Source: Neobacillus sp. YX16
Lineage (GTDB): Bacteria > Bacillota > Bacilli > Bacillales > Cytobacillaceae
NCBI RefSeq assembly: GCF_030123505.1
Contig: NZ_CP126115.1
Location: 2,370,001-2,434,000 of the forward strand
DNA length: 64,000 bases
Reading direction: 5' to 3'
Positions within the stretch are counted from its first letter, which is position 1; each line of letters starts with the position of its first letter. The notes below the pieces were generated by a model that was not told the origin of the DNA, did no database searches, and was given only the letters and a program-made list of their open reading frames with translations. This document shows positions 45,756 to 60,758 of the stretch, piece after piece. The translations under genes and the position numbers were made by a program.

Positions 45756-45786
45756 GTGCCTAACAATAAAGTTAGGCACCTTTTTA
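45756..45786. terminator. Bidirectional terminator between the J-domain gene and the Crp/Fnr genes
   Basis: GTGCCTAAC pairs perfectly with GTTAGGCAC around a 6-nt loop; TTTTTATT follows on the plus strand. It overlaps the end of the convergent Crp/Fnr gene. Confidence 0.85.
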
Positions 45787-46446
45787 TTCCTTATTGGTCA
45801 ACATTAATAAATCCAAGTTTTCAATGTGAATACCACCAGATTCTCGTAGATCTTTTAAACGATTAATATCCAGGATTTCAATCGTCCTATTTGATAAGTC
45901 GATGATTTTTTGAGTCTTCCACTTATTAAGTATTTTATTAACTGTAATTCTTGAGGTACCTATGTAACGGGCAAATGATGTTTGATCAATGGAGAAACTG
46001 CCATTTTCATTTATTAGTTTTAATAGATAATGCGCCATTTGTTGTTCAACCGGGGAGTTTAAAAAGGCTATTATCTCTGCAAGTATTCTAAATTTATAGA
46101 TTAGTGAATTGGTAAATAGACATGCTGCTTCAGGATGATTTTCACAAACTTTTTCTAACGCTTCATCAGAAAAATGATAGACAACAGATGAACAGGTAGC
46201 TAAAGCAGAGGTTAGATAAGCTTCCTTTCTTGAGCCGTGCTCTCCGAATAACATTCCTTCTGGAACATAATTAACGGTGCGTTCCACACCTTCTTTTGAA
46301 AGGAGGGTGATTTTTATTCCACCTTCAGATAAGAAGAAAAATCCTTTTCCTTCACATCCCTGACGGTAAACTACTGAATTTTCCTCAAACACAAGTTTAT
46401 TCCCATATTTTAAATAAGGACTCCAAGCGTTTCGAAGATTTTTCAT
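45784..46446 (-). CDS. Crp/Fnr-family regulator 2
   Basis: The 220-aa protein has a cyclic-nucleotide-binding-like N-terminal beta-barrel (FEENSVVYRQGCEGKGFFFL, GMLFGEHGS) and a C-terminal winged HTH (SIDQTSFARYIGTSRITVNKILNKWKTQKII). Its ATG overlaps the stop of the upstream Crp/Fnr gene by 4 nt, so both are co-translated and may form a heterodimer. No cysteine cluster for an Fe-S centre of Fnr type is evident. The pair diverges from the tryptophan/anthranilate catabolic cluster, which it most likely controls in response to a pathway metabolite. Confidence 0.9.
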   Translation of the reverse strand: MKNLRNAWSPYLKYGNKLVFEENSVVYRQGCEGKGFFFLSEGGIKITLLSKEGVERTVNYVPEGMLFGEHGSRKEAYLTSALATCSSVVYHFSDEALEKVCENHPEAACLFTNSLIYKFRILAEIIAFLNSPVEQQMAHYLLKLINENGSFSIDQTSFARYIGTSRITVNKILNKWKTQKIIDLSNRTIEILDINRLKDLRESGGIHIENLDLLMLTNKE

Positions 46447-47093
46447 GAAATCACCCTGCCTTGAATCTTTTTTAATTCATCGGGATTTATTATGATGATC
46501 TTTTTACCATGAACCTCAATGATGTCATCTTCCTTCCATTGCTTTAGAATCTTATAAATGGTAATTCTCGTTAAACCCGTGCATTTTGTTAGGTCTTGCT
46601 GTGATAGAGGAACTTCATAATTCTTAAATTCATAACAGATATTCAAAAGAATCACGGACAACTGTTGCTCTGGAATAAGTGTGTCCAAGTAAATTTTATC
46701 GGCTAGTATATGCATTTTATGGATGACCGTTTTTATAACCATGTGAAGGATTGAAGGTTGATAGGTTATTAGTTTTTGAAAATGATCACAATCGAAATAA
46801 TATAGTACTGAGTCATTTACAGCTGTAGCCGTTGTAAAATGTGGCTTCCGGTCCATAGCTTGAATCCCTAATAATTGCCCAGGAATAGCGATGTTTAGTA
46901 GGCGCTCTTTCCCATTTGTCGTTTTACTCGTCACTTTAACTAATCCCTTTTGGATATAATAAAATCCTTCTCCCATTGTCCCTTGTTGGTAAATACATTT
47001 TTTTTCCTTGAAAAATTGTCTAGTCCCAAATTGCAAACATGTTTCCCAATCAATATCACTGTCAAAAAGGATTGCCACTCTATCATCTCCCAA
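46443..47093 (-). CDS. Crp/Fnr-family regulator 1
   Basis: The 216-aa protein shows a Crp-like sensor domain (CIYQQGTMGEGFYYIQKGLVKV, GQLLGIQAMD), a dimerisation helix and an HTH (PLSQQDLTKCTGLTRITIYKILKQWKEDDII). It is the first gene of a two-gene operon with its paralogue. The 345-nt region shared with the divergent AAHS transporter gene holds a cre site and a palindrome with Crp geometry. The effector is unknown; kynurenine, anthranilate or 3-hydroxyanthranilate are plausible by context. Confidence 0.9.
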   Translation of the reverse strand: MGDDRVAILFDSDIDWETCLQFGTRQFFKEKKCIYQQGTMGEGFYYIQKGLVKVTSKTTNGKERLLNIAIPGQLLGIQAMDRKPHFTTATAVNDSVLYYFDCDHFQKLITYQPSILHMVIKTVIHKMHILADKIYLDTLIPEQQLSVILLNICYEFKNYEVPLSQQDLTKCTGLTRITIYKILKQWKEDDIIEVHGKKIIIINPDELKKIQGRVIS

Positions 47094-47139
47094 GTGAAAT
47101 TCAAGTGTTATGTATATTACGAGCTAATTTGCATTTTTT

Positions 47140-47153
47140 TGTTAACGCTTACA
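47140..47153. promoter_or_regulatory. cre site (CcpA) in the divergent control region
   Basis: TGTTAACGCTTACA matches 13 of 14 positions of TGWAANCGNTNWCA. It lies 47 nt from the start of the Crp/Fnr operon and 286 nt before the AAHS transporter gene. Carbon catabolite repression of the regulators, and possibly of the cluster, is expected. Confidence 0.75.
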
Positions 47154-47179
47154 TTTTACTGTAGATTAATAGATATGTA

Positions 47180-47199
47180 TTGTTAAATTCACATAACAA
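47180..47199. promoter_or_regulatory. Inverted repeat TTGTTA-N8-TAACAA
   Basis: Six-bp arms separated by 8 nt. The half-site resembles that of the 47222 palindrome, but the spacing is 2 nt longer than the Crp standard, so it may be a weaker or different site. Confidence 0.4.
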
Positions 47200-47221: not shown

Positions 47222-47237
47222 TGTTAACCACTTAACA
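47222..47237. promoter_or_regulatory. Crp/Fnr-geometry palindrome upstream of the AAHS transporter
   Basis: TGTTAACCACTTAACA has 5-N6-5 geometry like Crp sites (TGTGA-N6-TCACA). It lies between the tandem Crp/Fnr genes and the catabolic cluster, and a related 16-mer (12 of 16 matches) occurs at 48887 before the monooxygenase. It is a likely operator for one or both regulators. Confidence 0.55.
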
Positions 47238-47438
47238 ATAGTGTAAAAGATTAAAAAGATAAAATCAATATAGGTGAATTATTTTCAAAATAATCAGCCA
47301 ATTCATGGGACTTCCACTTAAATAGATATGAAGGAAGACAATCATGAAACCATTGAAAAAAGGGGGGAACCTTAAGAATATTCATCCAAGAATAAACACC
47401 AATGCCTATTGGAACAAATTCTAAAAGGAGATGGTTGG

Positions 47439-48794
47439 ATGAACAGGGAAGTACAATCTGTGGTTACGGAAGATTTAACAAAACAGAATGTCGGATTAAA
47501 TACTACTAAACTTTCTATTAAAAGTATGCCAAAAGCAACGTTTGTTGTTGTTATACTTTGCTGGTTTGCGATGCTGGCAGATGGATATGATTTAGGAATC
47601 TATGGTGCTGTATTACCATCATTAATGGAATATAAAGATTGGAGTATGACTCCAGCCCAAGCAGGTGCAATAGGAAGCTATGCATTAATGGGAATGCTGA
47701 TTGGTGCCATCTGTGTTGGAACTGTTACGGATATGATTGGCCGTAAATTGACCTTAATTTTTTGCGTTACCGTATTTTCGATTTCAATGTGTCTCGTCGC
47801 ACTTTCGACGTCACCGGAAATGTTTGGGATCTTTCGCTTTATTGGCGGTCTTGGACTTGGTGGAGTAATTCCTACAGCATCTGCTTTAACAATCGAGTAT
47901 TCTCCTGTCCGGCATCGATCAAAAATGTACGCCATTATGTATACTGGTTATCCAATTGGGGGAGTCCTTGGCGCTCTATTTTCCATGTTTCTTTTAGAGG
48001 ATTATGGATGGAGATTAATGTTTTGGATAGGTGTTATTCCACTTTTAGTTATTCCTTTTATTATTAAATTTCTTCCTGAGTCGATTAGCTTTCTAGTTGC
48101 TAAGAAAAGGTTTGATAAAGCTGAAAGTATAGCCCGAAAATTTCAACTTCCTAATGATTTTATCCAAAGTAATATGACGGATGAAACCAAAGGAACTACG
48201 AATAAATTCGCGGCTATTGCAAGTCTATTCTCACGAGAAAATATCAGGGCAACCATGTTTTTTTGGGTTACTTTCTTTCTAGGTCTGCTTATGATTTATG
48301 GTTTAAGTACATGGCTGCCAAAAATGATGCGTGAGGCAGGATATCCGCTCGGACCTAGTTTAGGATTTTTACTGATGTTAAACCTATCCGCAGCGATCGG
48401 TGCTCTAGTAGCAGGTACGGCGGCAGACCGATGGGGCTCTAGAAAAATTATCAGTCTTTCTTATTTCTTAGCAGGAGCTTCAATTGCACTTTTAAGCATA
48501 AAATCATCGATGTTCGTTGTGTATGGACTAGTGGGGGTAGCAGGTTTTGGAACTATTGGGACTACACTTATTCTAAATGCCTACATTTCTAAATATTTTG
48601 AAGCAGACAACCGAGCCACTGCTCTGGGATGGGCCCTGGGATTTGGACGGATTGGGGCTATATCAGGTCCAATTTTAATTGGTTTCTTTATGAGCTCAAA
48701 TTTTGACTTCTCGCTTAATTTTTATCTCTTTGCCGTTGCAGGAGTCTTAGCTTCCATTACAATCTTGTTTATCCCTAAAAAAGGAAATATATAA
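47439..48794 (+). CDS. AAHS-family aromatic acid transporter (probable anthranilate/kynurenine importer)
   Basis: The ATG at 47439 follows AAAGGAGATGG (451 aa). The DGYDLGIYGAVLPSLM motif in the first membrane helix is the mark of aromatic acid:H+ symporters such as PcaK and BenK. GTVTDMIGRKLT is MFS motif A. About twelve membrane segments. Placed at the head of the anthranilate/tryptophan cluster, it most likely imports anthranilate, kynurenine or a related aromatic acid. It is separated from the monooxygenase gene by a terminator at 48806. Confidence 0.9.
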   Translation: MNREVQSVVTEDLTKQNVGLNTTKLSIKSMPKATFVVVILCWFAMLADGYDLGIYGAVLPSLMEYKDWSMTPAQAGAIGSYALMGMLIGAICVGTVTDMIGRKLTLIFCVTVFSISMCLVALSTSPEMFGIFRFIGGLGLGGVIPTASALTIEYSPVRHRSKMYAIMYTGYPIGGVLGALFSMFLLEDYGWRLMFWIGVIPLLVIPFIIKFLPESISFLVAKKRFDKAESIARKFQLPNDFIQSNMTDETKGTTNKFAAIASLFSRENIRATMFFWVTFFLGLLMIYGLSTWLPKMMREAGYPLGPSLGFLLMLNLSAAIGALVAGTAADRWGSRKIISLSYFLAGASIALLSIKSSMFVVYGLVGVAGFGTIGTTLILNAYISKYFEADNRATALGWALGFGRIGAISGPILIGFFMSSNFDFSLNFYLFAVAGVLASITILFIPKKGNI

Positions 48795-48805
48795 AGTGTA
48801 AAGTT

Positions 48806-48852
48806 AAAAGCCGCTCTCTTCCATTCAAAAGAAGGGTACGGCTTTTATTTTT
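48806..48852 (+). terminator. Terminator after the AAHS transporter gene
   Basis: AAAAGCCG (48806-48813) pairs with CGGCTTTT (48839-48846), with CTTC/GAAG pairing inside, followed by ATTTTT. Confidence 0.85.
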
Positions 48853-48886
48853 CTAAAAAAGTATAATCTGACTTTTTTGAAAAAAG

Positions 48887-48902
48887 TGTTAACCAGACTA
48901 CA
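48887..48902 (+). promoter_or_regulatory. Crp/Fnr-like site upstream of the monooxygenase operon
   Basis: TGTTAACCAGACTACA shares its first nine bases and 12 of 16 overall with the palindrome at 47222-47237. It is 56 nt before the monooxygenase start. Confidence 0.4.
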
Positions 48903-48957
48903 ATGCCTTCGAAAATTCAGTTTTATAATAACACTATGAAGGATGAGGAGGATGTAT

Positions 48958-50436
48958 ATGGGAATTCGTACAGGAGCACAGTATATCGAGGCATTAAAAT
49001 CACGTAATCCAGAAGTTTGGTTATCAGGGAAAAGAGTAACAAATATCTTTGAAGAACCTGTTTTTCATCAACCAATTCTTGAAATGGCGAAGTTGTATGA
49101 TTTACAGCATGATCCAGCGTATCAGGGAGAGGTCACTCATATTTGTGAAGAAACCGGTGAAAGAATTTCAAATGCATTCATCGTACCAAAAAGCTATCAG
49201 GATCTAGAAGCTCGAAGAAAAACGTTCGAGGTGTTTGCTAAGGCAACGTTTGGTTTAATGGGAAGAACTCCTGATTTTCTAAATGTAGTGGTAACTTCTA
49301 TGGCTAGTAATTCCGAGTTCTTGGACAAATACAATCCTGAATGGGGAAAAAACATTCGAGCTTATTATAAGCATGTTCGCGACAATGACCTATTTTTAAC
49401 ACACGCTATTATTAATCCACAAAATGACCGCAGTAAATCATCACATGAACAACAGGATATGTTTACCCATTTAGGTGCTGTTAAAGAAACTCCAGATGGC
49501 TTGGTTGTAAGAGGCGCAAAGATGCTGGCAACCCTCGCACCTATTACCGACGAAGTAATTGTTTATTCATTCCCTGGATTTAAACCTGGAGATGAACGTT
49601 ATGCCCTTGCTTTTGCACTTCCACTTGATACGCCAGGGCTTCGTATTTTATGCCGTGAAGCTATGCAGGATGGAAAACGTTCTGTTTATGACCACCCATT
49701 AGCATCAAGATTCGAGGAAATGGACGCGGTCTTAGTATTTAATGATGTTTTAGTACCGTGGGATCGTGTTTTCCTTTATAACAATGTCGAGGCAGCAAAT
49801 TTACTGTATCCGAAAACAGGAATTGGTATCCAACCCGCACATCAATCTGGAGTTAGAGGTTTAATAAAGCTGCAATTTGCTACCGAAGTGGCTTGTAAAT
49901 TAGCAGACTCCATTGGTGTTGATTGTTATCTAAATGTTCAAAACGATTTAGGCGAATTAATCCAATCAGTAGAATCTATAAGGGCTTTGCTCCGAATCGC
50001 TGAGTATGAATATGAAGTTACAGAGACTGGTGAAGCAATGCCAGCCTATGCACCTCTTGAAACAATTCGAGGATTGCTGCCGAAAATGTATCCACGTGCC
50101 ATTGAAGTAATGCAAATCATCGGTGCTGGAGGGCTATTAATGTCACCAACGGATGCCGATTTTGAAAATCCAGATCTACGAGAAGATTTAGATCGATATT
50201 ACGTGGGAAGAGAAGGAGTAAATGCAGAAGAGCGTGTTCATCTCTTTAAGTTGGCATGGGATTTATGCGGTGAGGCATTTGGGCAAAGGATCCTTCAATA
50301 CGAACGTTATTACACAGGAGATCCAATTCGTAAGAGAGCCATTTTCTATAACAACCACAAAAGAAATAATTCATTTAAGCTGGTTGAAGAAGCGTTGGAG
50401 ATTTTTGACCGAAAAAAAGAGGTTCCTAGCTTATAA
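48958..50436 (+). CDS. FADH2-dependent anthranilate 3-monooxygenase (HpaB-like oxygenase)
   Basis: The 492-aa protein belongs to the HpaB/HpaH flavin monooxygenase family ([72 protein letters not shown]). Most such proteins are annotated 4-hydroxyphenylacetate 3-monooxygenase. Here the next two genes encode an FAD-synthetase domain and a flavin reductase, and 3-hydroxyanthranilate dioxygenase follows. That matches the anthranilate 3-monooxygenase system known from Geobacillus thermodenitrificans (EC 1.14.14.8). I therefore infer anthranilate to 3-hydroxyanthranilate. The ATG at 48958 follows GAGGAGG by 6 nt. Confidence 0.88.
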
Positions 50437-50468: not shown

Positions 50469-50993
50469 GTGCAAACGTTAAAAGATGGTGCTCTAACACT
50501 TAAAGGTTCTGTTATTGCTATTGGTGCATTTGATGGGGTACACAAAGGACACCAAGCTGTCATTAGGCAGGCTGTGGAAAAGAGTCTTTTTCATCAGGTT
50601 CCAAGCGTCGTATATACGTTCGACCCGCCTCCTCGACATTTTTTTAAAGGTGCCCAAATCTTGACACCCATTCAAGAAAAGGTAAGTAGGATCTATAAAT
50701 TAGGTGTAGATTATGTGATTGTTGCTAGTTTTGATGAATGGTATGCAACGCGCCCTCCTGAAGATTTTATCAGTGAATTATCAAAACTTAACCCGATAGA
50801 AGTGTCTATTGGTTCGGATTTTCGTTTTGGAAAAAGTAGAAAAGGTGATGTAGAACTATTAAAAAAATACTTTCAGATCAATGTGACATTACCTGTTTAT
50901 TGTAATGGCGGAGAACTTATTTCATCAACGAGAATTCGCCAGTTAATTTCAGAGGGAGATTATCAACAGTCCTACGCCTTATTAGGGTGGTAA
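50469..50993 (+). CDS. FAD synthetase (RibF N-terminal domain only) serving the monooxygenase
   Basis: The 174-aa product is the FMN adenylyltransferase domain of RibF/RibC: IAIGAFDGVHKGHQAVI (nucleotidyl-transferase HxGH), YTFDPPPRHFF, IGSDFRFGKSRKG and ISSTRIRQLI. The riboflavin kinase domain of normal RibF (about 310 aa) is absent, so it should make FAD from FMN only. It starts with GTG 9 nt after GGAGG. Placed between the oxygenase and the flavin reductase, it probably ensures FAD supply for the FADH2-dependent oxygenase. Confidence 0.9.
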   Translation: MQTLKDGALTLKGSVIAIGAFDGVHKGHQAVIRQAVEKSLFHQVPSVVYTFDPPPRHFFKGAQILTPIQEKVSRIYKLGVDYVIVASFDEWYATRPPEDFISELSKLNPIEVSIGSDFRFGKSRKGDVELLKKYFQINVTLPVYCNGGELISSTRIRQLISEGDYQQSYALLGW

Positions 50994-51038: not shown

Positions 51039-51599
51039 ATGAAACTACTAGGAATTTCAGGCACCATTATTGGAGAAAAGACGAGTATTGTTGTCCAAAA
51101 GGTCCTTGAAGGAGTAAAGAAACACCATCCAAATGTGGAAATTGAATTGTTGGATTTAAGAGAATATGATGTCCAGTTTTGTGATGGTCGAAACCCTGCG
51201 ACCTACACGGGTGATACAAAAAAAGTTCTTGATATCATTCAATCTGCTGATTTTTATATTATCGGAACACCAATTTTTCAAGGCTCATTATCAGGACCAC
51301 TTAAGAATTTATTTGATTTAATCAATCCAAAGGATATTCGTAATAAAGTAATGGGATTTGTCGCTACCGGCGGTACTTTCCAGCACTACCTGGTGATTGA
51401 AAACCAATTGAAACCAATTGCAGGATTTTTCCGGGCATTCGTAGCTCCAGGCTATGTGTACGTTAATAACGATCATTTCAATAAAGATAATGAAATCATC
51501 GATCAGGAAGTATTAAACCGAATTACAGACTTAGCAAAAGAAGTAGTATTCATGCAAGAAGCATTAAAATCATTCGAAGAAAAATTAACAACGGTCTGA
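51039..51599 (+). CDS. NAD(P)H-dependent flavin reductase (FMN_red family)
   Basis: The 186-aa flavodoxin-like protein begins MKLLGISGTIIGEKTSIVVQ (phosphate-binding loop) and has FYIIGTPIFQGSLSGPLKNLFD, typical of NADPH-dependent FMN reductases such as SsuE. In this operon it should supply reduced FAD to the HpaB-like oxygenase. An AAAGGGGTA site lies before the ATG. A 265-nt tandem repeat region follows immediately. Confidence 0.88.
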   Translation: MKLLGISGTIIGEKTSIVVQKVLEGVKKHHPNVEIELLDLREYDVQFCDGRNPATYTGDTKKVLDIIQSADFYIIGTPIFQGSLSGPLKNLFDLINPKDIRNKVMGFVATGGTFQHYLVIENQLKPIAGFFRAFVAPGYVYVNNDHFNKDNEIIDQEVLNRITDLAKEVVFMQEALKSFEEKLTTV

Positions 51600-51864: not shown

Positions 51865-51914
51865 CGCATTAGATATAAGTGGGGTCAATAAAATTCGAGA
51901 GGGGACAGTTACTC

Positions 51915-52454
51915 ATGACAAATTCATTAAAACCAATAAACCTATGGGGATTTATCGAAGAAAATAAGGAACAATTAAAGCCGCCGGTTAATAATAAAGT
52001 CATTTGGAAGGATTCGGAGCTAATGTTTATGATCCTTGGCGGACCAAACAAACGACGTGATTTTCACGTTGATCCATCGGAAGAGATTTTTTATCAATTA
52101 AAAGGTAATTGTTACGTTGAAATTATTAACGCAGAGGGTAAAAGAGAAGTGATTACAGTGAAAGAAGGAGAAGTATTCCATCTGCCTCCAAATGTACCTC
52201 ATTCTCCGCATCGAGTGGCTGATACAATTGGAATTGTGATTGAACGTGACAGAGCAACAGGTGAATTAGAGGATTTTGTTTGGTTCTGTGATGAATGTGA
52301 CCATGAGATGCATCGAGTTTCGGTCCAATTAACGAATATTGAAGTACAGGTAAAAGAGGCAATCAATGGTTTTAACAGTAATGTAGAGCTTCGTACTTGT
52401 AAGAATTGTGGTTATGTAATGCCGGAAGAAGCGAGTGAATGGAAATGCGAGTAG
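51915..52454 (+). CDS. nbaC: 3-hydroxyanthranilate 3,4-dioxygenase
   Basis: The frame opens at 51879, but the ATG at 51915 (MTNSLKPINLWGFIEENK, 179 aa) follows AGGGGA and matches the family start. The cupin iron site is in DFHVDPSEEIFYQLKG (His, Glu) and a later His in LPPNVPHSPHR. The end carries two Cys pairs (CDEC, CKNC) of the rubredoxin-like second metal site found in bacterial enzymes. It opens 3-hydroxyanthranilate to 2-amino-3-carboxymuconate 6-semialdehyde. Its end overlaps the next gene by 16 nt. Confidence 0.95.
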   Translation: MTNSLKPINLWGFIEENKEQLKPPVNNKVIWKDSELMFMILGGPNKRRDFHVDPSEEIFYQLKGNCYVEIINAEGKREVITVKEGEVFHLPPNVPHSPHRVADTIGIVIERDRATGELEDFVWFCDECDHEMHRVSVQLTNIEVQVKEAINGFNSNVELRTCKNCGYVMPEEASEWKCE

Positions 52455-53449
52455 ATTTTCATACACATATCATTCCAGAAAATTTCCCGGACTTTGCGGC
52501 AAAGTACCAAAATGATAAATGGCCAATCCTTCAGCCAACCTGTTCGTGTGGTGCTAATATTATGGTTGCAGGCAAGGTATTTCGTGAAGTGACAGACCAG
52601 GTTTGGAGTCCGGAGAAGCGGATTAGTGATATGGAAAAGGAAAATGTAGATATACAGGTTCTTTCGCCCATCCCAGTTACATTTTCTTACTGGGCACCAA
52701 TTGAAGAAGCTGTAATCATGGCTAGATTACAGAATGATTTTATCGCAGAAACAGTTGCACAATATCCAACGAAGTTTATTGGTCTTGGGACTGTCCCGCT
52801 GCAAAATGTTGAATTTGCCATTCGTGAACTAGATCGTTGTGTTCATGAACTGGGTTTAAAGGGGATTGAAATTGGCACGAACATTAATGGGAAAAATTTA
52901 GATGATGAATCGTTAACAGACTTCTTTGCCATGTGTGAGAAGTGGAATGTTCCGATATTCGTTCATCCATGGGAAACACTTGGCAGTGATCGGTTCACCA
53001 AACATAACCTAATGTACACTGTCGGGATGCCAAGTGAAACTGCATTAGCGGCCGCAAGTTTAATCCTAGGTGGTGTTCTTGAAAAGTTTCCTGGATTAAA
53101 AATCTGTTTTTCTCATGGCGGCGGCTCACTGCCTTATATTCTTCCCCGCCTTGATCATGGGTGGAATGTCTGGCCGCACCTTCAGCTGACAGAGCAGCCT
53201 CCAAGTTTTTATGCCAAGAAATTTTTCTATGATTCTATCGTAAATAATCCAGTGAATATTAAATTCCTAGTTGAAAAATTTGGTGCAGAACAAGTCATCA
53301 TGGGATCTGACTATCCATTCCTACTCAGAGAAACGCCTCCTGGGAAGATTATTGATGATACTCTATCCCTTACTGCTGATCAAAAAAGAGCAATGTTAGG
53401 TGAAAATGCACTAAGATTCTTAAATATTCCGGTTAATCAACTAATTTAG
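52439..53449 (+). CDS. nbaD: 2-amino-3-carboxymuconate-6-semialdehyde decarboxylase (ACMSD)
   Basis: The 336-aa amidohydrolase-family protein has the metal ligands in DFHTHIIPE (HxH), FVHPWETLG, CFSHGGG and MGSDYPF (Asp). ACMSD decarboxylates the dioxygenase product to 2-aminomuconate 6-semialdehyde and so diverts it from quinolinate formation. It overlaps the dioxygenase gene by 16 nt; a second ATG at 52445 (MRVDFHTH) is an equally possible start. Length is normal. Confidence 0.95.
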   Translation: MEMRVDFHTHIIPENFPDFAAKYQNDKWPILQPTCSCGANIMVAGKVFREVTDQVWSPEKRISDMEKENVDIQVLSPIPVTFSYWAPIEEAVIMARLQNDFIAETVAQYPTKFIGLGTVPLQNVEFAIRELDRCVHELGLKGIEIGTNINGKNLDDESLTDFFAMCEKWNVPIFVHPWETLGSDRFTKHNLMYTVGMPSETALAAASLILGGVLEKFPGLKICFSHGGGSLPYILPRLDHGWNVWPHLQLTEQPPSFYAKKFFYDSIVNNPVNIKFLVEKFGAEQVIMGSDYPFLLRETPPGKIIDDTLSLTADQKRAMLGENALRFLNIPVNQLI

Positions 53450-53468: not shown

Positions 53469-53945
53469 ATGGTAGAAAAAGTGATGACGCCAGAAGAAAG
53501 ATTACAGCAAATGGGCTTGGAACTTCCGCCCCTCCGCCCCGCATCTGGTAATTATGTAAGCTGTGTTCGGACAGGGAATCTAATTTTTACATCAGGTCAA
53601 GGTACAGATGAATACCGTGGGAAACTTGGTGAAGATGTATCGATAGAAGTAGGCTATCAAGCAGCAAGACAATGTATGCTTAATCTATTGGCAGTAGTCA
53701 AGAAAGAACTCGGCGACCTTAGCAAAGTGAAACGAATTGTCAAAATCCTTGGTATGGTCAACAGCTCGCCTGATTTTAAAGACCAACCTAAAGTAATGAA
53801 TGGATCCTCCGATTTGTTGGTGGAAGTGTTTGGTGAAAAGGGAAGGCATGCGAGATCAGCTGTTGGGATGTCACAGCTGCCACACAATAACGCTGTCGAG
53901 GTTGAGATGATTGTAGAAGTTGAGGATGGTGGTATCGGTGAGTAA
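53469..53945 (+). CDS. nbaF: RidA-family 2-aminomuconate deaminase
   Basis: This 158-aa YjgF/RidA-like protein contains GNYVSCVRTGNLIFTSGQG and VKRIVKILGMVNSSPDF. RidA-like proteins of this longer type act as 2-aminomuconate deaminase in the 2-nitrobenzoate / tryptophan meta pathways, giving 4-oxalocrotonate. Position between ACMSD and the semialdehyde dehydrogenase supports this. A general enamine deaminase role is the alternative. The end overlaps the start of the dehydrogenase gene. Confidence 0.85.
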   Translation: MVEKVMTPEERLQQMGLELPPLRPASGNYVSCVRTGNLIFTSGQGTDEYRGKLGEDVSIEVGYQAARQCMLNLLAVVKKELGDLSKVKRIVKILGMVNSSPDFKDQPKVMNGSSDLLVEVFGEKGRHARSAVGMSQLPHNNAVEVEMIVEVEDGGIGE

Positions 53946-55404
53946 AGTCCTAGAAAAAGAACTTCAAATTAACGATGCAAAGTTGTTTATTAATGGAGAA
54001 TATGTAAGCGCTATTTCTGGGGGAACATTTGACACGATTAATCCAGCAACGAATCAAAAGTTAGCTGAGGTCGCTAGTGCATGTGAACAAGATGTAGAAA
54101 GAGCGATACAAGTGGCAAAGCGTACCTATGATAGTGGTATTTGGAATAAAATGCAAGTAGAAGAAAGAGCAAAGATCCTGTGCCGAATGGCGGATCTTGT
54201 CTTGGAACGAGTCGAGGAGTTAGCGCTAATTGAAACATTAGATGTTGGGAAGCCCATTAGAGAAAGCAGAGATTTTGATATACCGCGCGCAGCATCAAAC
54301 TTAAGATTCTTTGCTGAAATGGCAAAATACATTAATCACGAGCATTACGAACAATCCAAGCATATGAGCTATACTAAATACGCTCCAGCAGGTGTCACAA
54401 GCTTAATCATTCCGTGGAATTTACCATTCATGCAAATGACTTGGAAAGTTTCCGCTGCGTTAGCTGCTGGTAATACCGTGGTAGTTAAGCCAGCTTCATA
54501 TACGCCACTTAGTGCGGTCATGTTAGGTGAAATTGCCAACGAAGCAGGACTACCGCCAGGCGTGTTGAATATACTAACAGGTCCGGGTGGAACAGTAGGA
54601 ACGGCAATGACCACTCATCCATACGTTCGCAGGATTTCCTTTGTCGGGGAGAGCTCAACTGGTAAAACAGTTATGAGAAATGCAGCATCCCAGTTAATTC
54701 CTGTATCATTAGAATTAGGCGGAAAATCAGCCAATATCGTGTTTGAAGATGCTGACTTAGATGAAGCAGTAGCAGGTTCGATTGAAGCGATTTTTAGAAA
54801 TCAAGGGGAAATCTGTTTAGCCGGTTCTAGATTATTAGTGCAAGAATCGGTTTATGATAAATTCCTCGAAAAATTTGTTAAAGCTGCAAAGAACATCAAA
54901 GTGGGCGATCCGCTAGATGAAACCACGGATATGGGTGCGCTAATTTCCAAAGGTCATCTAGAAACGGTTGATAACTATGTACAAATTGGAATTTCTGAAG
55001 GTGCGAAACTTGCTGTAGGCGGTAAGCGTGTGGCAGGATTGACAGAAGGAAACTTTTACGAACCAACCGTGCTCTATGATGTGAATAACAAAATGAGAGT
55101 CGCACAGGAAGAAATTTTTGGACCGGTATTAGTTGTCATTCCATTTAAAACGGAAGAGGAAGCTATTCAAATCGCCAACGATTCGATTTATGGATTGGCT
55201 GGTGTAGTCTGGTCGAATGATTTAAGGCGTGCACATCGTGTAGCATCTCAAATCGATTCAGGCTTATTCTGGATCAATTGCTGGTATTATCGTGATTTAA
55301 GAACGCCTTTTGGTGGTTCAAAGGCTAGCGGTATTGGCCGAGAAGGTGGACGTCATAGTTTTGAATTTTACACAGAGGCCAAAACGATTACAATGAAATT
55401 ATAA
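53926..55404 (+). CDS. nbaE: 2-aminomuconate 6-semialdehyde dehydrogenase (ALDH family)
   Basis: About 492 aa. Aldehyde dehydrogenase motifs are complete: PWNLPFMQMTWKVSAALAAGNTVV, SFVGESSTGK, LELGGKSANIVFEDADL (Glu) and FRNQGEICLAGSRLLV (Cys). The start overlaps the deaminase gene; ATG 53926 is used, but TTG 53920 or GTGs just downstream are possible. It oxidises 2-aminomuconate semialdehyde to 2-aminomuconate with NAD. The closely related 2-hydroxymuconate semialdehyde dehydrogenase activity is the alternative; the cluster favours the amino form. Confidence 0.92.
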   Translation: MVVSVSKVLEKELQINDAKLFINGEYVSAISGGTFDTINPATNQKLAEVASACEQDVERAIQVAKRTYDSGIWNKMQVEERAKILCRMADLVLERVEELALIETLDVGKPIRESRDFDIPRAASNLRFFAEMAKYINHEHYEQSKHMSYTKYAPAGVTSLIIPWNLPFMQMTWKVSAALAAGNTVVVKPASYTPLSAVMLGEIANEAGLPPGVLNILTGPGGTVGTAMTTHPYVRRISFVGESSTGKTVMRNAASQLIPVSLELGGKSANIVFEDADLDEAVAGSIEAIFRNQGEICLAGSRLLVQESVYDKFLEKFVKAAKNIKVGDPLDETTDMGALISKGHLETVDNYVQIGISEGAKLAVGGKRVAGLTEGNFYEPTVLYDVNNKMRVAQEEIFGPVLVVIPFKTEEEAIQIANDSIYGLAGVVWSNDLRRAHRVASQIDSGLFWINCWYYRDLRTPFGGSKASGIGREGGRHSFEFYTEAKTITMKL

Positions 55405-55475: not shown

Positions 55476-56255
55476 ATGGAAGTATTAGTCGAAGAAATTG
55501 CGAATGAATTAATCGATGCAGAAAGTCATCAATATTCGGTCGCCCCTCTGACGGAGCGCTATTCCGAGTTGACTGTAAGCGATGCCTACCAAATCCAACT
55601 CGAAGTAATCGGTAAAAAGCTAAAAGAAGGGCATGAAGTGATTGGGAAAAAGGTTGGGCTTACAAGTAAAGCAATGCAGCAAATGCTTGGCGTCGATGAG
55701 CCTGATTACGGCCACCTGTTAGATTATATGAAAATAGCCGATGAAGCAACGGTAAAAATAGCTGATTTTATCAGTCCGAAGGTTGAAGCGGAAATTGGTT
55801 TTATTCTGGAAAAAGACTTAGTTGGACCCAATGTAAATTATCTAGATGTGTTAATGGCTACCAAATATGTAGTACCAACCATCGAGATTATTGACAGCCG
55901 TATTTCTGATTGGAAAATCAAATTGGTTGATACGGTCGCAGATAATGGCTCGTCAGCGAGAGTAGTAGTTGGAAAAAAGCTGAGCACCATTGAAGGCTTG
56001 GATTTGCGAGCTCAAGGAATGGTCATTTATAAAAATAATGAGCTTGTGGCCACAGGATCTGGAACTGCCGCTCTAGGACATCCAGCGCAAGCAGTCGCAT
56101 GGTTAGCCAATAAATTGCATGAATTTGGCATTACTCTTAAAGCAGGTGAGTTAATTCTTCCCGGAGCACTTTCTGGAGCCATTGCAGTAAAAGAAGGCGA
56201 CACGATTTTCTCGGATTTTGGCCCATTAGGTACTGTATCTGTCACATTTAAGTAA
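55476..56255 (+). CDS. nbaH: 2-oxopent-4-enoate (2-hydroxypenta-2,4-dienoate) hydratase
   Basis: The 259-aa fumarylacetoacetase-superfamily protein reads GKKVGLTSKAMQQMLGVDEPDYG, IDSRISDWKIKLVDTVADN and GSGTAALGHPAQAVAWLANKL, closest to MhpD/XylJ-type hydratases. It hydrates 2-oxopent-4-enoate to 4-hydroxy-2-oxovalerate. It is paralogous to the next gene, the decarboxylase; the two classes are distinguished by their family-specific segments. AAGGAAGG precedes the ATG. The following aldolase and acetaldehyde dehydrogenase are not in the window. Confidence 0.86.
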   Translation: MEVLVEEIANELIDAESHQYSVAPLTERYSELTVSDAYQIQLEVIGKKLKEGHEVIGKKVGLTSKAMQQMLGVDEPDYGHLLDYMKIADEATVKIADFISPKVEAEIGFILEKDLVGPNVNYLDVLMATKYVVPTIEIIDSRISDWKIKLVDTVADNGSSARVVVGKKLSTIEGLDLRAQGMVIYKNNELVATGSGTAALGHPAQAVAWLANKLHEFGITLKAGELILPGALSGAIAVKEGDTIFSDFGPLGTVSVTFK

Positions 56256-56300: not shown

Positions 56301-57089
56301 ATGACACTGCTGCAAGGAACAGAACAAGAAATCGTAGACTACCTATTAGCTGCAGAAAAGGAAAAGCGGGAAGTCGAAAAGATTACCACTAGTTACCCAA
56401 CTCTAACATTTGGGCAAGCCTATGAAATTCAACAAAAATTAATCAAGCAAAAAGAACATGAGGGTCTTCGCCGAATTGGAGTGAAACTCGGTTTAACAAG
56501 TAAGGCAAAACAGGAGATGATGGGTGTCCATGAAGCAATTTACGGCTATTTAATGGATGATATGCTGGCACCTGAATGGGAACCACTCCAATTTAGCAGT
56601 TTCATTCATCCCAAGGCAGAACCGGAAATTGCTTTCTTGATTAATGAAGATATCCAAGGAACTAGCGTTACAGCCGATGATATTTTAAAGGTGACGAAAT
56701 ATGTAGCACCAGCGATCGAGATTATTGATAGTCGTTATTTAGATTTCAAGTTTACACTCGTAGACGTCGTTGCTGATAACTGTTCTTCCTCAAAATTTAT
56801 TGTAGGCAACAAATGGGTATCGCCGGATGCTTTAAACCTGAAAGAAATTGGTGTATATATGTCAAAGAATTCAGAGGTTGCAACAACTGGGAACAGTGCT
56901 GCTGTTTTAGGAGATCCGGCTGCTGCGGTTGCGTGGGCTGTAAACAAGCTTGGAGAAACTGGGCAGGGATTAAAGAAAGGCGATATCGTTCTTAGTGGCG
57001 CTATAACGGAAGCAATTAGCTTTCAACCAGGTGATACGATTTTGGCACAATTTGCGGACCTAGGGAGTGTTTCTTTTTCTAGCAAATAA
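56301..57089 (+). CDS. nbaG: 4-oxalocrotonate decarboxylase
   Basis: The 262-aa protein reads RIGVKLGLTSKAKQEMMGVH, HPKAEPEIAFLI, APAIEIIDSRYLDFKFTLVDVVADN and VLSGAITEAI, closest to DmpH/XylI-type decarboxylases. It converts 2-oxo-hex-3-enedioate to 2-oxopent-4-enoate and in related pathways forms a complex with the hydratase, encoded just before it. AGTGGAGG precedes the ATG by 9 nt. Confidence 0.86.
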   Translation: MTLLQGTEQEIVDYLLAAEKEKREVEKITTSYPTLTFGQAYEIQQKLIKQKEHEGLRRIGVKLGLTSKAKQEMMGVHEAIYGYLMDDMLAPEWEPLQFSSFIHPKAEPEIAFLINEDIQGTSVTADDILKVTKYVAPAIEIIDSRYLDFKFTLVDVVADNCSSSKFIVGNKWVSPDALNLKEIGVYMSKNSEVATTGNSAAVLGDPAAAVAWAVNKLGETGQGLKKGDIVLSGAITEAISFQPGDTILAQFADLGSVSFSSK

Positions 57090-57144
57090 TCAAACTGCTA
57101 CATAATTTATTTCAGTAGGTATGGAAGATTGGAGGGTATATATT

Positions 57145-58413
57145 TTGTTATCTTTAGAGAATGCACAACAACTGGACATAGAAGACAGCCTTAATAGATT
57201 TAGGGAAGAATTTTACTTGAAGCCGAATTCCATTTATATGGACGGGAATTCATTGGGGCTGCTTTCGAAAAGAGCAGAACGGACGCTCTTAGAGTCCTTA
57301 AATGATTGGAAAGAGCATGGAATTGACGGTTGGACAAATGGGAAACACCCTTGGTTTTTTTTATCGGAAAAACTAGGAGAGATGATCGCTCCGTTAGTAG
57401 GTGCTGCAGCTAATGAAGTGATTGTAACTGGGTCCACAACAGTCAACTTGCATCAGCTAGTTGCTACTTTTTATAAGCCTGAAGGGACACGGACTAAAAT
57501 CTTGGCTGATGAACTAACATTTCCATCAGATATTTATGCACTTCAAAGTCAGCTTCGTATTCATGGATTTGATCCCGATACACATCTAATTCGTGTGAAA
57601 AGTCGGGATGGGCGCTTTTTAGAGGAAGAAGATATTATCGGAGCGATGACAGATGAAATTGCGCTTATCATTTTGCCAACAGTACTCTATCGAAGCGGCC
57701 AAATCTTGGATATGAAGCGCCTGACAGCTGAAGCGAACAAAAGAGGGATATTAATCGGTTTTGATGGATGCCATTCTATCGGAGCCATTCCACATTCGTT
57801 TAGTGAATGGGGCGTGGACTTTGCGTATTGGTGCAACTATAAACACTTAAATGGTGGTCCGGGAAGTGTTGGAGGTTTATATGTGAATTCTAAACATTTT
57901 GGCACTGCCCCTGGTCTTGCTGGCTGGTTTGGTTCGAAAAAAGAGAAACAATTCGACATGGAGCATTCTTTAACTCCAGCTGATTCAGCAGGAGCCTATC
58001 AAATCGGGACACCACATGTGTTGAGTCTTGCACCCTTACTTGGAGCTTTGGAGATTTTTGCAGAAGCAGGAATTGAAAATATCAGGGAAAAGTCATTGAA
58101 AATAAATCGGTTCTTGATGGATTTGTTGGACCAAGAGTTATCCGGTATGGGATTCAACATAGGTAACCCTCAAGACGCTGTGCGCCGTGGAGGTCATGTG
58201 AGCCTAGAGCATAAAGAAGCAGCACGGATTTGCAAGGCATTAAAAGAAAATGGTATTATTCCTGATTTCCGAGCACCTAATATTATTCGTCTAGCTCCAG
58301 TGGCTCTTTACACCTCATATTGTGAGGTATGGGAAGTAGTACAAATTCTAAAGAAAATTATGGAAGAGAGACAATATGAAAAATTCGCAAATGAACGAGA
58401 GGTCGTAGCATAA
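57145..58413 (+). CDS. kynU: Kynureninase
   Basis: GGAGGG at 57131-57136 fits the TTG at 57145 ([16 protein letters not shown], 422 aa); an ATG at 57121 would lie upstream of that site. Family segments are [56 protein letters not shown] and the PLP lysine in [19 protein letters not shown]. It cleaves kynurenine to anthranilate and alanine. With no kynurenine 3-monooxygenase here, kynurenine itself is the expected substrate, and the anthranilate feeds the HpaB-like oxygenase. Confidence 0.96.
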
Positions 58414-58438
58414 AATTACGAATAGTAGGAGGAACTAT

Positions 58439-59869
58439 ATGGGGAACAAAATTACTCATTTAAATAAAGGGAATGAATCCGGAAGTGGATTGAAGCGTGA
58501 ATTAAAAACCAAGCAGTTAACAATGATTGCAATGGGATGTGCAATTGGTACGGGGTTATTCCTTGGAAGCGGCCTTGCCATTAGTACTGCTGGACCGGGA
58601 GTAATACTTAGTTATGCAATTGGCGCATTTATTGTATTACTATTAATGGGGTGCTTATCCGAAATGACGGTGGCTCACCCCACGTCAGGGTCCTTTGGAA
58701 CCATTTCAGAAAAGTATGTCAGCCCGCTGGCTGGTTTTCTTGTCCGCTATTCCTATTGGATAGCAAACGTTCTTGCGGTTGGGGTAGAAGTAAGTGCCAT
58801 TGCTGTCTATATGAAGTACTGGTTCCCTGATGTTCCCGGATTCGTCTGGATTTTGTTGTTTGCAGGTGTATTAATTTATGTAAATGCAACAAGCGTAAAT
58901 ACCTTTGCTACCTTCGAGTATTGGTTCTCCATGATCAAAATTAGTGCAATAGTTGGTTTCATTCTTTTAGGATCTTATGTTTTATTTGGCAATTCAGCTC
59001 AGCCGAATATGGGACCTGAGAATATTGTGAATGCCGGAGGTTTCTTACCGTTTGGATGGTGGGGGATGTGGGTGGCTATCTTTATTTCATTATTTAGCTT
59101 TTTAGGAACAGAAATGATAGCGGTTACAGCTGGAGAAGCAAAGGATCCTGACGTAGCCGTGCCAAAAGCTCTGAAAGCGACGGTATTCAGGTTATCAACA
59201 TTCTATATTATTACTATTGGCATTATGCTAATGATTGTTCCTTGGAAATCAGCAGGTGTGGAAGAAAGTCCTTTTGTAAAGGTAATGGAGCTATTAAACA
59301 TCCCTGGTGCTTCCGGGATTATGAATTTTATTATTTTAACTGCTGCTTTATCTGCTATGAACAGTCAACTTTATGCTTCTACCCGAATGATGTTTTCTTT
59401 GTCACAAGGAAATGATGCTCCTGCCTTTTTACGTACATTAAGTAAAAAAGGAGTTCCGATAAAGGCTCTTGGAGTTTCTACTTTAGGGATTTTCCTTGCA
59501 GCTGCAGTAAATGCATTATTACCAGGCTCCTCCTATGCGTTTATGATGGGGATTTCAATGTTCGGTGCTATTTTTACATGGTTTATGGTGTTTGTATCCC
59601 ATTTATTTTTTAGAAGAAAGTGGGAGAAGTCAAATGGCCGTAAATTGCCTGTAAAAATGATTGGCTTTCCTTATTTAACGATCGCAGGAGCAGTACTACT
59701 CTTGAGTTTAATGATAACAACATGGTTTACAGATTTTAAGATTATGCTTCAATTTGGAATTCCGTGGTTACTGTTTTTAACGGCTGCCTATTTCTTTTTT
59801 AAAAAAGGATCCAACACTCAAAAACCAGGAAATGATACGAATGATATTTTAAATGAGAATATAAATTAA
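58439..59869 (+). CDS. APC-family amino acid permease (probable tryptophan uptake)
   Basis: The 476-aa protein has about twelve membrane segments and the amino acid permease N-terminal motif ([26 protein letters not shown]). It also has [21 protein letters not shown] and [15 protein letters not shown], as in GabP/AnsP-type carriers. AGGAGGA precedes the ATG by 7 nt. It lies between kynU and kynA, so tryptophan or kynurenine is the likely substrate, by context only. Confidence 0.88.
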
Positions 59870-59909
59870 CTTTACATTAGTACAACATAAGAACAGGGGA
59901 GAATTTTAC

Positions 59910-60758
59910 ATGAATACACCAGAAAAAAACATAAGCACCGGTTTGGAAAAAACGATTCAAACAGATTTCCAAAAAGAAATGTCGTATGGAGATTACCTGC
60001 ATCTTGATAAGATTTTAGATAGTCAGCACCGGTTATCTGATCACCATGATGAAATGTTATTTATCATTATCCATCAAGCAAGTGAACTATGGATGAAATT
60101 AATTATTCATGAATTATCAGAAGCGATTAATTATATTCGCCAGAATGATTTAGAACCATCCTTTAAAATTCTGTCGCGTGTTTCAAGAATACAGCAGCAA
60201 TTGATTCAATCATGGAGTGTTCTTTCTACTTTAACCCCATCAGAGTACCTAGAGTTTAGGGATAAGCTCGGCCAATCTTCCGGCTTCCAGTCCTATCAGA
60301 ACCGGATGATTGAATTTGCATTAGGAAACAAAAATGCTCATACTCTAGCAGTCTATCAGCATCAAACAGAGCTGTATGTAAAAATGCAGGAGGCACTTCA
60401 TAAACCAAGTATTTATGATGCAGCCATCCAAGCGCTTGTTGCTCGTGGAATTCCTGTTGATGAAGAGGTCTTAAATCGCGATTTGTCCAAAAACTATGAA
60501 CCTAATGAAAGTGTTGAAGAAGCATGGCTGACAGTTTACCGTAATGTCGATCAATATTGGGATTTATACGAGCTGGCAGAGAAGTTAGTAGATATTGGGA
60601 ATCAACAGCAATTATGGCGGTTCAATCACATGAGTACGGTAGAAAGAATCATTGGGCATAAGCAGGGTACAGGAGGATCATCTGGAGTGACCTATTTAAA
60701 AAGAGTTCTAGACCAGCACTTCTTCCCTGAACTTTGGAGTTTACGAACGAAGCTATAG
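59910..60758 (+). CDS. kynA: Tryptophan 2,3-dioxygenase
   Basis: The 282-aa haem enzyme has [44 protein letters not shown], the His of [10 protein letters not shown] being in the active site. The haem-binding His is in [26 protein letters not shown], which also holds the substrate loop. It oxidises L-tryptophan to N-formylkynurenine. GGGGAG precedes the ATG. It is the last gene of the cluster and is followed by a terminator; kynB (kynurenine formamidase), often next to kynA, is missing. Confidence 0.97.

What the first reader, a model, noticed from the sequence alone, without database searches (positions are those of the whole stretch)
45784..60758. Tryptophan-to-anthranilate meta-cleavage cluster under paired Crp/Fnr regulators and CcpA
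The cluster encodes tryptophan dioxygenase, kynureninase, a three-gene anthranilate 3-hydroxylase, HAAO, ACMSD, semialdehyde dehydrogenase, deaminase, decarboxylase, hydratase and two transporters. Known from the families: the hydroxylase module matches the Geobacillus thermodenitrificans anthranilate 3-monooxygenase (EC 1.14.14.8), so no kynurenine 3-monooxygenase is needed. The tandem Crp/Fnr regulators linked to this route, with palindromes of Crp geometry in front of the transporter and the oxygenase, look new to me. The enzymes are described; the control circuit is the less explored part.
Basis: partly seen in the sequence, partly recalled or inferred. Interest (0 to 1): 0.72.

Follow-up and report, generated by a model that had tools for sequence, protein, structure and literature searches.

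The report
Paired regulators of anthranilate breakdown
Next to a largely known set of genes for breaking down tryptophan by way of anthranilate, this soil bacterium carries two sister gene-switch proteins that nearly always occur together in related bacteria, appear to share one DNA landing code, and may be an undescribed control system for pathways that lead to anthranilate.

Summary
The cluster (47409-60758) encodes the listed enzymes, and two Crp/Fnr genes (45784-47093) lie divergently beside it. The enzymology is known (Geobacillus 3-hydroxyanthranilate route); the control part is new as far as my limited searches go.

The regulators, here A (46443-47093) and B (45784-46446), form two sister clades. 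At E <= 1e-20, 21 of 397 genomes of the order have both types and none has only one; all 21 are among the 63 with the hydroxylase. Upstream of the oxygenase lies YGTTAA-N5-YWACA, then 21 bp, then TATAAT: a dyad at about -41.5, the class II Crp/Fnr position. It occurs at 16 of 16 hydroxylase copies in genomes with a close A/B pair, 0 of 43 without a pair, 0 of 5 with only distant pairs. Distant pairs sit beside other clusters predicted to yield anthranilate (isatin hydrolase, phenylglyoxylate-dehydrogenase-like, 4-quinolone dioxygenase); several carry the same code.

Most likely A and B together activate anthranilate-funnel operons in response to an ortho-aminobenzoyl compound. A conserved cre box adds predicted CcpA control. 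Ligand, binding and heterodimerisation are untested. New variant of a known kind.

The parts
45784..46446 (-). Regulator B: Crp/Fnr family (cNMP-type pocket + HTH_Crp_2)
   Evidence: Pfam HTH_Crp_2 6e-14, cNMP_binding 3e-11; B clade SH-aLRT 96; AF2 model pLDDT 88.9, CRP-like fold
46443..47093 (-). Regulator A: Crp/Fnr family; stop overlaps the B start (ATGA)
   Evidence: Pfam cNMP_binding 1.5e-16, HTH_Crp_2 6e-12; A clade SH-aLRT 89; AF2 pLDDT 84.8, CRP-like fold
47139..47154 (.). cre box TTGTTAACGCTTACAT (predicted CcpA site)
   Evidence: 0 mismatches; 0 mismatches in 10 of 12 and 1 in 2 of 12 Neobacillus-group loci
47180..47199 (.). TTGTTA-N8-TAACAA palindrome; spacing not Crp-like
   Evidence: intact in 6 of 12 Neobacillus-group loci only
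47222..47237 (+). A/B-type dyad TGTTAACCACTTAACA before the transporter; possible -10 TAAAAT at 47260-47265 (22 bp)
   Evidence: intact in 10 of 12 loci
47409..48794 (+). MFS aromatic-acid/H+ symporter-like transporter (the start may be further downstream)
   Evidence: TIGR00895 328.6 bits, below its cut-off of 418.6
48887..48902 (+). A/B-type dyad TGTTAACCAGACTACA before the oxygenase
48924..48929 (+). -10 element TATAAT, 21 bp after the dyad (class II geometry)
48943..50436 (+). HpaB-type oxygenase, predicted anthranilate 3-monooxygenase
   Evidence: TIGR02309 463 bits, cut-off 480; context
50469..50993 (+). FAD-synthetase-like protein (nucleotidyltransferase half of RibF)
   Evidence: PF06574 3e-40
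51039..51599 (+). NAD(P)H-dependent FMN reductase
   Evidence: PF03358 2e-29; MsuE-type TIGR03566 107.6 bits, below its cut-off
51879..52454 (+). 3-hydroxyanthranilate 3,4-dioxygenase
   Evidence: NF009763 and TIGR03037 over cut-off
52439..53449 (+). 2-amino-3-carboxymuconate 6-semialdehyde decarboxylase
   Evidence: PDB 2wm1, E 9e-91; no NCBIfam match
53469..53945 (+). Rid-family protein, predicted 2-aminomuconate deaminase
   Evidence: PF14588 6e-25; Rid relatives of other or unknown function in PDB; the role is from context
53920..55404 (+). aldehyde dehydrogenase, predicted 2-aminomuconate semialdehyde dehydrogenase (the true start is probably further downstream)
   Evidence: PF00171 1e-179; closest named models HpaE and 2-hydroxymuconic semialdehyde dehydrogenase, below cut-off
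55476..56255 (+). 2-oxopent-4-enoate hydratase
   Evidence: TIGR03220 302 bits, below cut-off
56301..57089 (+). 2-oxo-3-hexenedioate decarboxylase
   Evidence: TIGR03218 276 bits, below cut-off
57121..58413 (+). kynureninase
   Evidence: TIGR01814 over cut-off
58439..59869 (+). amino-acid permease
   Evidence: several amino-acid permease models, all below cut-off
59910..60758 (+). tryptophan 2,3-dioxygenase
   Evidence: TIGR03036 over cut-off; only PF03301 match in the genome

Best explanation
The cluster takes tryptophan (tryptophan dioxygenase, an unlinked formamidase, kynureninase) and imported anthranilate to 3-hydroxyanthranilate, and by meta-cleavage to 2-oxopentenoate. An unlinked aldolase and acetaldehyde dehydrogenase then give pyruvate and acetyl-CoA. 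The divergent pair A and B are predicted non-cAMP, non-Fe-S Crp/Fnr proteins. They are predicted to bind an ortho-aminobenzoyl ligand, for this pair most likely anthranilate, to recognise TGTTAA-N4/5-TTAACA-type dyads, and to activate the oxygenase promoter from -41.5 (class II), and the transporter promoter in the same way. A cre box between the pair and the transporter would let CcpA repress when better carbon is present. Supported by comparative sequence evidence: genes, pairing, site, its spacing and its co-occurrence with the pair. Inferred: that A/B bind the site, activation, ligand, CcpA action.
For: Pairing: at E <= 1e-20, 21 of 397 genomes of the order hold A- and B-type proteins and none only one type; A and B are separate clades, together apart from 9 other Crp/Fnr proteins (quick tree).

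Linkage: all 21 lie among the 63 hydroxylase genomes, hypergeometric 6e-19. Of 24 order-sample pairs, 16 sit by the hydroxylase cluster (the window's own one), 3 by phenylglyoxylate-dehydrogenase-like genes and 4 by isatin-hydrolase/TPP-enzyme genes (one of these split over two contigs); 1 is unclear.

Site: 16 of 16 hydroxylase copies with a close pair, 0 of 43 with no pair, 0 of 5 with only distant pairs. The -10 sits at 21 bp for 15 of 23 dyads in loci L132-L151, shuffle mean 0 over 5 shuffles.

Prediction test: four loci with the site but no regulators in the held DNA (L003, L016, L018, L025). All four genomes have an adjacent A/B pair (A 52-93%, B 55-96%). Two of the four are weak tests: see against.

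Code: both recognition helices keep the arginine aligned with CRP R180 (A 60/60, B 61/61), and have Ile or Val for E181 (A 60/60, B 55/61) and Lys for R185 (A 59/60, B 56/61). That fits a half-site TGTTA in place of TGTGA (CRP contacts recalled).

Ligand class: distant pairs lie beside isatin hydrolase and a Hod/AqdC-type quinolone dioxygenase.
Against: No experiment. Gene, site and pair are mostly inherited as one block, so the counts are not independent events. In the prediction test, L003 and its pair contig both end inside the transporter gene (a fragmented MAG, probably one locus) and in the L025 genome the pair lies on the same contig just outside the fetched stretch; only L016 and L018, both Brevibacillus panacihumi, are truly unlinked, and that species also carries a distant pair, in G006 on the oxygenase's own contig. 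The 0-of-43 set holds genomes that also lie in the discovery set. L011 has only a degenerate oxygenase-proximal dyad. Of the distant-pair loci, L115, L118 and L126 gave no composite site and L120 and L124 only weak ones. The spacing histogram has smaller peaks besides 21 bp (18, 20, 22 bp in the discovery set; 24 and 32 bp in L114-L129). 42 of 63 hydroxylase genomes in the sample manage without the pair. One lone relative (G081) breaks the pairing. The isatin and quinolone assignments rest on one representative protein each. The ligand is guilt by association.
Confidence: 0.72

Rival explanations
1. A and B act as two separate homodimers with different ligands or signs (for example one activates with anthranilate, the other senses an upstream metabolite or redox state), competing for the same dyads.
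For: Recognition helices differ at one position (A Tyr180 60/60; B mostly Asn170, 42/61) and the putative ligand pockets differ (A Q78, D81; B E69, G71, Y77). The transporter dyad in the window is symmetric. B keeps Cys101 in 57 of 61, a possible redox handle.
Against: Near-obligate pairing in several gene orientations (30 tandem A-B, 17 convergent, 6 tandem B-A, 3 divergent of 56 close pairs) is more than two independent regulators would need.
Confidence: 0.4
2. The dyad belongs to another factor (another Crp/Fnr or an unrelated regulator), and A/B are passengers of the gene block.
For: Site and pair usually lie within a few kb of each other, so linkage could explain co-occurrence. The clear case of an unlinked close pair is one species, Brevibacillus panacihumi (G006, G007), which also has a distant pair.
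Against: That unlinked case itself. Hydroxylase copies without a close pair lack the site (0 of 43 and 0 of 5). Similar dyads at 21-22 bp precede genes beside several distant pairs at other pathways. The recognition helices fit the half-site.
Confidence: 0.12
3. Each pair senses the first substrate of its own cluster (kynurenine or tryptophan here, isatinate or quinolones elsewhere) and anthranilate is not the ligand.
For: Two genomes (G154, G425) carry both a hydroxylase pair and a phenylglyoxylate-dehydrogenase-type pair, which would be redundant if both sensed anthranilate.
Against: In the hydroxylase-pair loci of the order sample other than L132 and the window, no kynureninase or tryptophan dioxygenase lies in the fetched 14-18 kb, so kynurenine is a less likely signal there; copies elsewhere in those genomes were not searched for.
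Confidence: 0.3
4. Ordinary known cluster under ordinary CRP/FNR control.
For: The fold is CRP-like.
Against: The position aligned with CRP R82 is Thr or Ser in 59 of 60 A rows and Thr in 55 of 61 B rows, no Fnr-type cysteine set is conserved, the half-site is TGTTA, and the pair forms its own clade apart from 5 other Crp/Fnr proteins of the same genome.
Confidence: 0.05

Closest known systems
Anthranilate degradation cluster of Geobacillus thermodenitrificans NG80-2 (Liu et al. 2010, seen only through the review PMC4539516, passages)
   Same: Anthranilate hydroxylase with FAD-supplying and reductase genes in one cluster, then meta-cleavage by way of 3-hydroxyanthranilate.
   Different: Here kynureninase, tryptophan dioxygenase, two transporters and an A/B pair are attached.
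CprK of Desulfitobacterium (PMC2610375, start of abstract in the listing and one passage)
   Same: Crp/Fnr-type activator of a catabolic (halorespiration) operon that binds an aromatic ligand and an inverted repeat.
   Different: CprK senses o-chlorophenols and its predicted box is TTAAT-N4-ATTAA; here the half-site is TGTTA, the genes come as an A/B pair, and sequence similarity is weak (3e-6 for A alone; 1.6e-11 and 3e-14 by profile).
E. coli CRP
   Same: Fold, spacing of half-sites (N6) and predicted class II position -41.5.
   Different: Residues aligned with R82 (cAMP) and with E181 and R185 (TGTGA) are replaced (CRP roles recalled).
Fnr1-Fnr3 of Herbaspirillum seropedicae (PMC5934665, abstract and passages)
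   Same: Precedent for heterodimers of Crp/Fnr paralogues inferred from asymmetric half-sites and two-hybrid data.
   Different: Oxygen control by Fe-S Fnr proteins; not described in these passages as a dedicated adjacent pair tied to one class of pathway.
aqdRABC alkylquinolone degradation cluster (PMC5332414, passages)
   Same: Quinolone ring cleavage presumed to end in anthranilic acid; L118, L121 and L124 hold a Hod/AqdC-type dioxygenase, an FAD monooxygenase and an esterase-like hydrolase.
   Different: Controlled there by a putative TetR-family regulator; here an A/B pair is adjacent. The AqdA there is a type-B carboxylesterase, the hydrolase here resembles other esterases.

Membership tests
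Crp/Fnr superfamily | cNMP-type beta-roll, long dimer helix and HTH_Crp_2 | tested here: met
   Pfam matches to both domains in A and B; AF2 models and PDB folds
CRP (cAMP-dependent) | cAMP phosphate-binding Arg (R82, recalled) | tested here: not met
   A: T 43 and S 16 of 60; B: T 55 of 61 at the aligned position
CRP (cAMP-dependent) | E181 and R185 for TGTGA (recalled) | tested here: not met
   E181 position I or V in A 60/60 and in B 55/61; R185 position K in A 59/60 and B 56/61 (B R 2/61)
Fnr (4Fe-4S) | N-terminal Cys cluster plus a central Cys (recalled) | tested here: not met
   only A C153 (39/60) and C171 (43/60) and B C101 (57/61) are Cys in over half of the rows
CprK-like aromatic sensor | binds an aromatic effector in the beta-roll | not testable with these tools
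   needs ligand binding or a co-crystal; distant sequence kinship only
Class II Crp/Fnr-activated promoter | dyad centred near -41.5 | tested here: met
   21 bp between dyad and -10 in 16 of 16 copies and the highest peak at 21 bp in three sets; the start site is inferred from the -10, not mapped
Anthranilate 3-monooxygenase module (EC 1.14.14.8) | HpaB-type oxygenase with FAD-synthetase-like and reductase genes beside HAAO | tested here: met
Anthranilate 3-monooxygenase module (EC 1.14.14.8) | orthology to the characterised Geobacillus oxygenase | tested here: inconclusive
CcpA regulon | conserved cre box | tested here: met
   0 mismatches in 10 of 12 loci; cre consensus recalled; binding not tested

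The most novel reading that the evidence does not exclude
A and B are obligate partners of a heterodimeric Crp/Fnr activator, a two-gene version of a classically homodimeric regulator, that senses ortho-aminobenzoyl compounds. It has been copied as a unit to control at least three routes that converge on anthranilate (tryptophan/kynurenine, isatin, alkylquinolone), with one promoter code. The fixed asymmetry of the oxygenase site (YGTTAA upstream, mostly TGTAR on the other strand downstream) would mark the orientation of the heterodimer.
Probability: 0.35. Interest if true: 0.78.

Novelty: new variant of a known kind. Interest (0 to 1): 0.62.

Why it matters
Crp/Fnr proteins that sense aromatic compounds are few in my knowledge, and no paper linking Crp/Fnr regulators to anthranilate catabolism came up in my two searches of the held library. 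A conserved pair with a readable promoter code would name the control system in many genomes, let anthranilate-yielding clusters be found by their promoters (including candidate quinolone-signal degraders), and give a clean test of why a homodimeric regulator would be kept as a two-gene pair. It also offers a candidate anthranilate sensor.

Tried and rejected
The N8 palindrome at 47180-47199 was dropped as a regulator site: wrong spacing, and intact in 6 of 12 loci. The bare dyad TGTTA-N6-TWACA is not informative genome-wide: 63 matches (both strands, palindromic ones counted twice) against 62 for the reversed control; only the composite with the -10 is specific. Aldolase/acetaldehyde dehydrogenase and formamidase regions (L152, L158, L159) were scanned for the dyad: none was perfect. 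A CRP- or Fnr-type signal was rejected on residues. The singleton relative in G081 (C1:1471818) had no recognised pathway gene besides TRAP-type transporter genes and a ghrB-like gene, and no partner, in L160. The order-sample pair in G400 at L122 has only a flavin reductase and TRAP genes nearby. In the G006 and G009 stretches that hold the close pair (L116, L131) no key pathway gene lay within 6 kb. This genome has no isatin hydrolase candidate: its only PF04199 match is the formamidase. A kynurenine 3-monooxygenase elsewhere in the genome was not searched for.

Paper searches that gave no paper. One search gave one Streptomyces genome paper, judged from its listing only. One search used the narrow phrase 'crp fnr family', which may miss the spelling with a slash.

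Rows dropped or capped: one search kept the best 80 of 279 relatives; one search ignored hits under 40% query coverage; many genomes had only the first 7 candidates scored; one search merged A or B proteins with identical last 150 residues; L157 gave no row for the tree; the tree is the quick one with warnings about long branches, the careful search was not finished; L035's genome is not held. The mirror-tree r of 0.954 (56 pairs; permutation maximum 0.33 on 55) is inflated by species kinship and is not used as proof. In one search the scan required GTTAA in the upstream half, so only the downstream half is informative there; L011 and L014 were not in that scan. On rechecking I lowered the best explanation from 0.75 to 0.72 and raised the passenger rival from 0.10 to 0.12, because the prediction test has only one clearly unlinked species.


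Full report
What is there. The window lies in a 6.23-Mb genome whose nearest relatives at this locus are Neobacillus and unclassified Bacillus records. HAAO, kynureninase and tryptophan dioxygenase exceed curated cut-offs; ACMSD is supported by PDB relatives (E 9e-91). The oxygenase is HpaB-type (463 bits against a cut-off of 480). The FAD-synthetase-like gene, the reductase and HAAO next to it match the published description of the Geobacillus anthranilate pathway as told in a review (PMC4539516, passages). Steps missing from the cluster are elsewhere: a kynurenine formamidase over its cut-off at about 1144081 (L152:4082-4711), and two pairs of acetaldehyde dehydrogenase plus 4-hydroxy-2-oxovalerate aldolase at 501261-503169 and 2897321-2899218. 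So the route from tryptophan to central metabolism can be drawn from this genome. This part is known biology; whether this oxygenase is the ortholog of the characterised one was not tested.

The regulators. A (46443-47093) and B (45784-46446) overlap by ATGA and are transcribed away from the cluster. Of the 80 loci fetched by the oxygenase (best 80 of 279), 21, and the window itself, hold A and B both at 50% identity or more near the oxygenase: Neobacillus and Bacillus records, Brevibacillus, Ammoniphilus, Aneurinibacillus and one record named Anoxybacillus. In 397 genomes of the order, searched at E <= 1e-20, 21 hold both A-type and B-type proteins and no genome holds only one type (read from the member lists, since each query also finds the other type). 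They form 24 A-B pairs, one of them split over two contigs (G400), plus one unpaired relative in G081. All 21 genomes are among the 63 with the hydroxylase at E <= 1e-150 (hypergeometric 6e-19). A quick tree of 60 A, 61 B and 9 other Crp/Fnr proteins (5 from this genome) puts A and B in one clade each (SH-aLRT 89 and 96) and together apart from the others (99), with long-branch warnings. Of 60 A proteins in fetched loci, 56 have a B within 1.5 kb, in four gene orientations; the other four have one at 1.5 to 12 kb.

The site. Upstream of the oxygenase a dyad, 21 bp and TATAAT recur. Discovery set: 60 oxygenase upstream regions. 27 score at most 2 mismatches to TGTTA-N6-TWACA plus TATAAT: all 22 with linked A and B (in L010 and L011 the best-scoring match was a more upstream dyad, and the oxygenase-proximal dyad of L011 is degenerate), L003, L016, L018 and L025 without regulators in the held flank, and L014 (weaker; distant pair). 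The other 33 do not. For the four without regulators I predicted a pair elsewhere; all four genomes have one, adjacent: G001 93/96%, G006 and G007 52/61%, G009 53/55% for A/B. The weight of this test is limited. In G009 the pair lies on the same contig just outside the fetched stretch. In the MAG G001 both contigs end inside the transporter gene, so they are probably one locus. Only G006 and G007, both Brevibacillus panacihumi, are unlinked, and they also carry a distant pair, in G006 on the oxygenase's contig (contig lengths). No genome of the 33 site-less loci that could be searched (all but L035's) has a pair with both members at 50% or more.

Second sample: all 64 oxygenase copies of the 63 order-sample genomes. 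YGTTAA-N5-YWACA plus TATAAT at 20-22 bp with at most 1 mismatch in total: 16 of 16 where A/B is close, 0 of 43 where there is no pair, 0 of 5 where only distant pairs exist. Spacing histogram: of dyads YGTTAA-N5-YWACA, a -10 with at most 1 mismatch lies at 21 bp for 15 of 23 (L132-L151), 8 of 28 (L114-L129) and 24 of 70 (discovery loci); means of 5 shuffles at 21 bp are 0, 0 and 0.2. Lesser peaks are at 18, 20 and 22 bp (9, 6 and 7, discovery) and at 24 and 32 bp (5 and 4, L114-L129). With the -10 ending at -7, 21 bp centres the dyad at -41.5, the class II position of Crp/Fnr activators (recalled). In the whole genome the composite occurs once.

Protein code. Against CRP, both recognition helices keep R180 (60/60, 61/61) and have Ile or Val for E181 (A 60/60, B 55/61) and Lys for R185 (A 59/60, B 56/61). 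CRP uses E181 and R185 for the fourth base of TGTGA (recalled); here that base is T, so the lost contacts fit the found half-site. R82 of CRP is Thr or Ser in 59 of 60 A rows and Thr in 55 of 61 B rows, so cAMP is unlikely, and no Fnr cysteine set is conserved. AF2 models (pLDDT 84.8 and 88.9) match CRP-type folds.

Other pairs. Pairs at 36-51% identity lie by other clusters: (i) an isatin hydrolase (PDB 5nnb, E 6e-79) with a TPP enzyme and an aldehyde dehydrogenase; (ii) phenylglyoxylate-dehydrogenase-like subunits with a thioesterase; (iii) a Hod/AqdC-type 2,4-dioxygenase (PDB 3ibt and 6ra2) with an FAD monooxygenase, an esterase-like hydrolase and a YddG-like exporter. Isatin and isatic acid occur on indole-to-anthranilate routes (PMC6221969, passages). 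AqdC-type cleavage of the quinolone signal gives N-octanoylanthranilate, presumably hydrolysed to anthranilic acid (PMC5332414, passages). A dyad with 21-22 bp spacing and at most one mismatch in all precedes the TPP enzyme (L117, L127), isatin hydrolase (L119), aldehyde dehydrogenase (L123, L125, L128, L150), TRAP transporter (L141, L144) or phenylglyoxylate-dehydrogenase-like and thioesterase genes (L151). L149 has such sites with two mismatches; L115, L118 and L126 gave none, L120 and L124 only weak ones, L121 one with two mismatches and no gene assigned behind it. The linked routes converge on anthranilate; that is why I name an ortho-aminobenzoyl ligand. The substrates of (i)-(iii) are inferred from one representative protein per family.

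CcpA. A cre box at 47139-47154 is perfect in 10 of 12 Neobacillus-group loci and has one mismatch in two.

Asymmetry. At the oxygenase promoters listed the downstream half-site reads TGTA on the other strand, while the transporter-side dyads of the Neobacillus group are symmetric TGTTAA/TGTTAA. Asymmetric half-sites were part of the argument for Fnr1-Fnr3 heterodimers in Herbaspirillum (PMC5934665, passages). Here it is a hint only, since promoter constraints could do the same.

Known or new. The enzymes are known. Two full-text searches of the held library pairing Crp/Fnr terms with anthranilate found no relevant paper (the first with a narrow phrase); subscription journals are mostly missing, so this is no proof of novelty. 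I file the control part as a new variant of the Crp/Fnr kind.

Noticed in passing
window 51610-51844: A 52-bp tandem repeat, 4.5 copies, 87% matches, between the reductase and HAAO genes; function unknown.
   Followed up: no
window 44915-45718: Small protein with a weak DnaJ-like C-terminal match (E 8e-4) and two similar N-terminal segments, found beside the pair in several Neobacillus-group loci.
   Followed up: no
L118, L121, L124 (Sporosarcina and Alteribacillus genomes): Candidate alkylquinolone-degradation clusters with their own A/B pair: Hod/AqdC-type dioxygenase, FAD monooxygenase, esterase-like hydrolase, YddG-like exporter.
   Followed up: partly
L141, L144, L151, L114: Phenylglyoxylate-dehydrogenase-like subunits plus a thioesterase beside an A/B pair, in L114 also an isatin hydrolase: a possible CoA-dependent isatinate-to-anthranilate route.
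   Followed up: partly
L024 and L058: The record named Anoxybacillus sediminis PCH 117 is nearly identical here to Brevibacillus thermoruber in the oxygenase promoter, A and B; the organism name may be wrong.
   Followed up: no
G081:C1:1471818-1472387 (L160): A lone relative about equally close to A and B with no partner found: an exception to the pairing.
   Followed up: partly
loci without a close A/B pair, e.g. L054 and L067 (cluster c27): An IclR-type PcaR-like regulator gene lies by the hydroxylase in some loci; 42 of 63 hydroxylase genomes in the order sample lack A/B and must be regulated otherwise.
   Followed up: no
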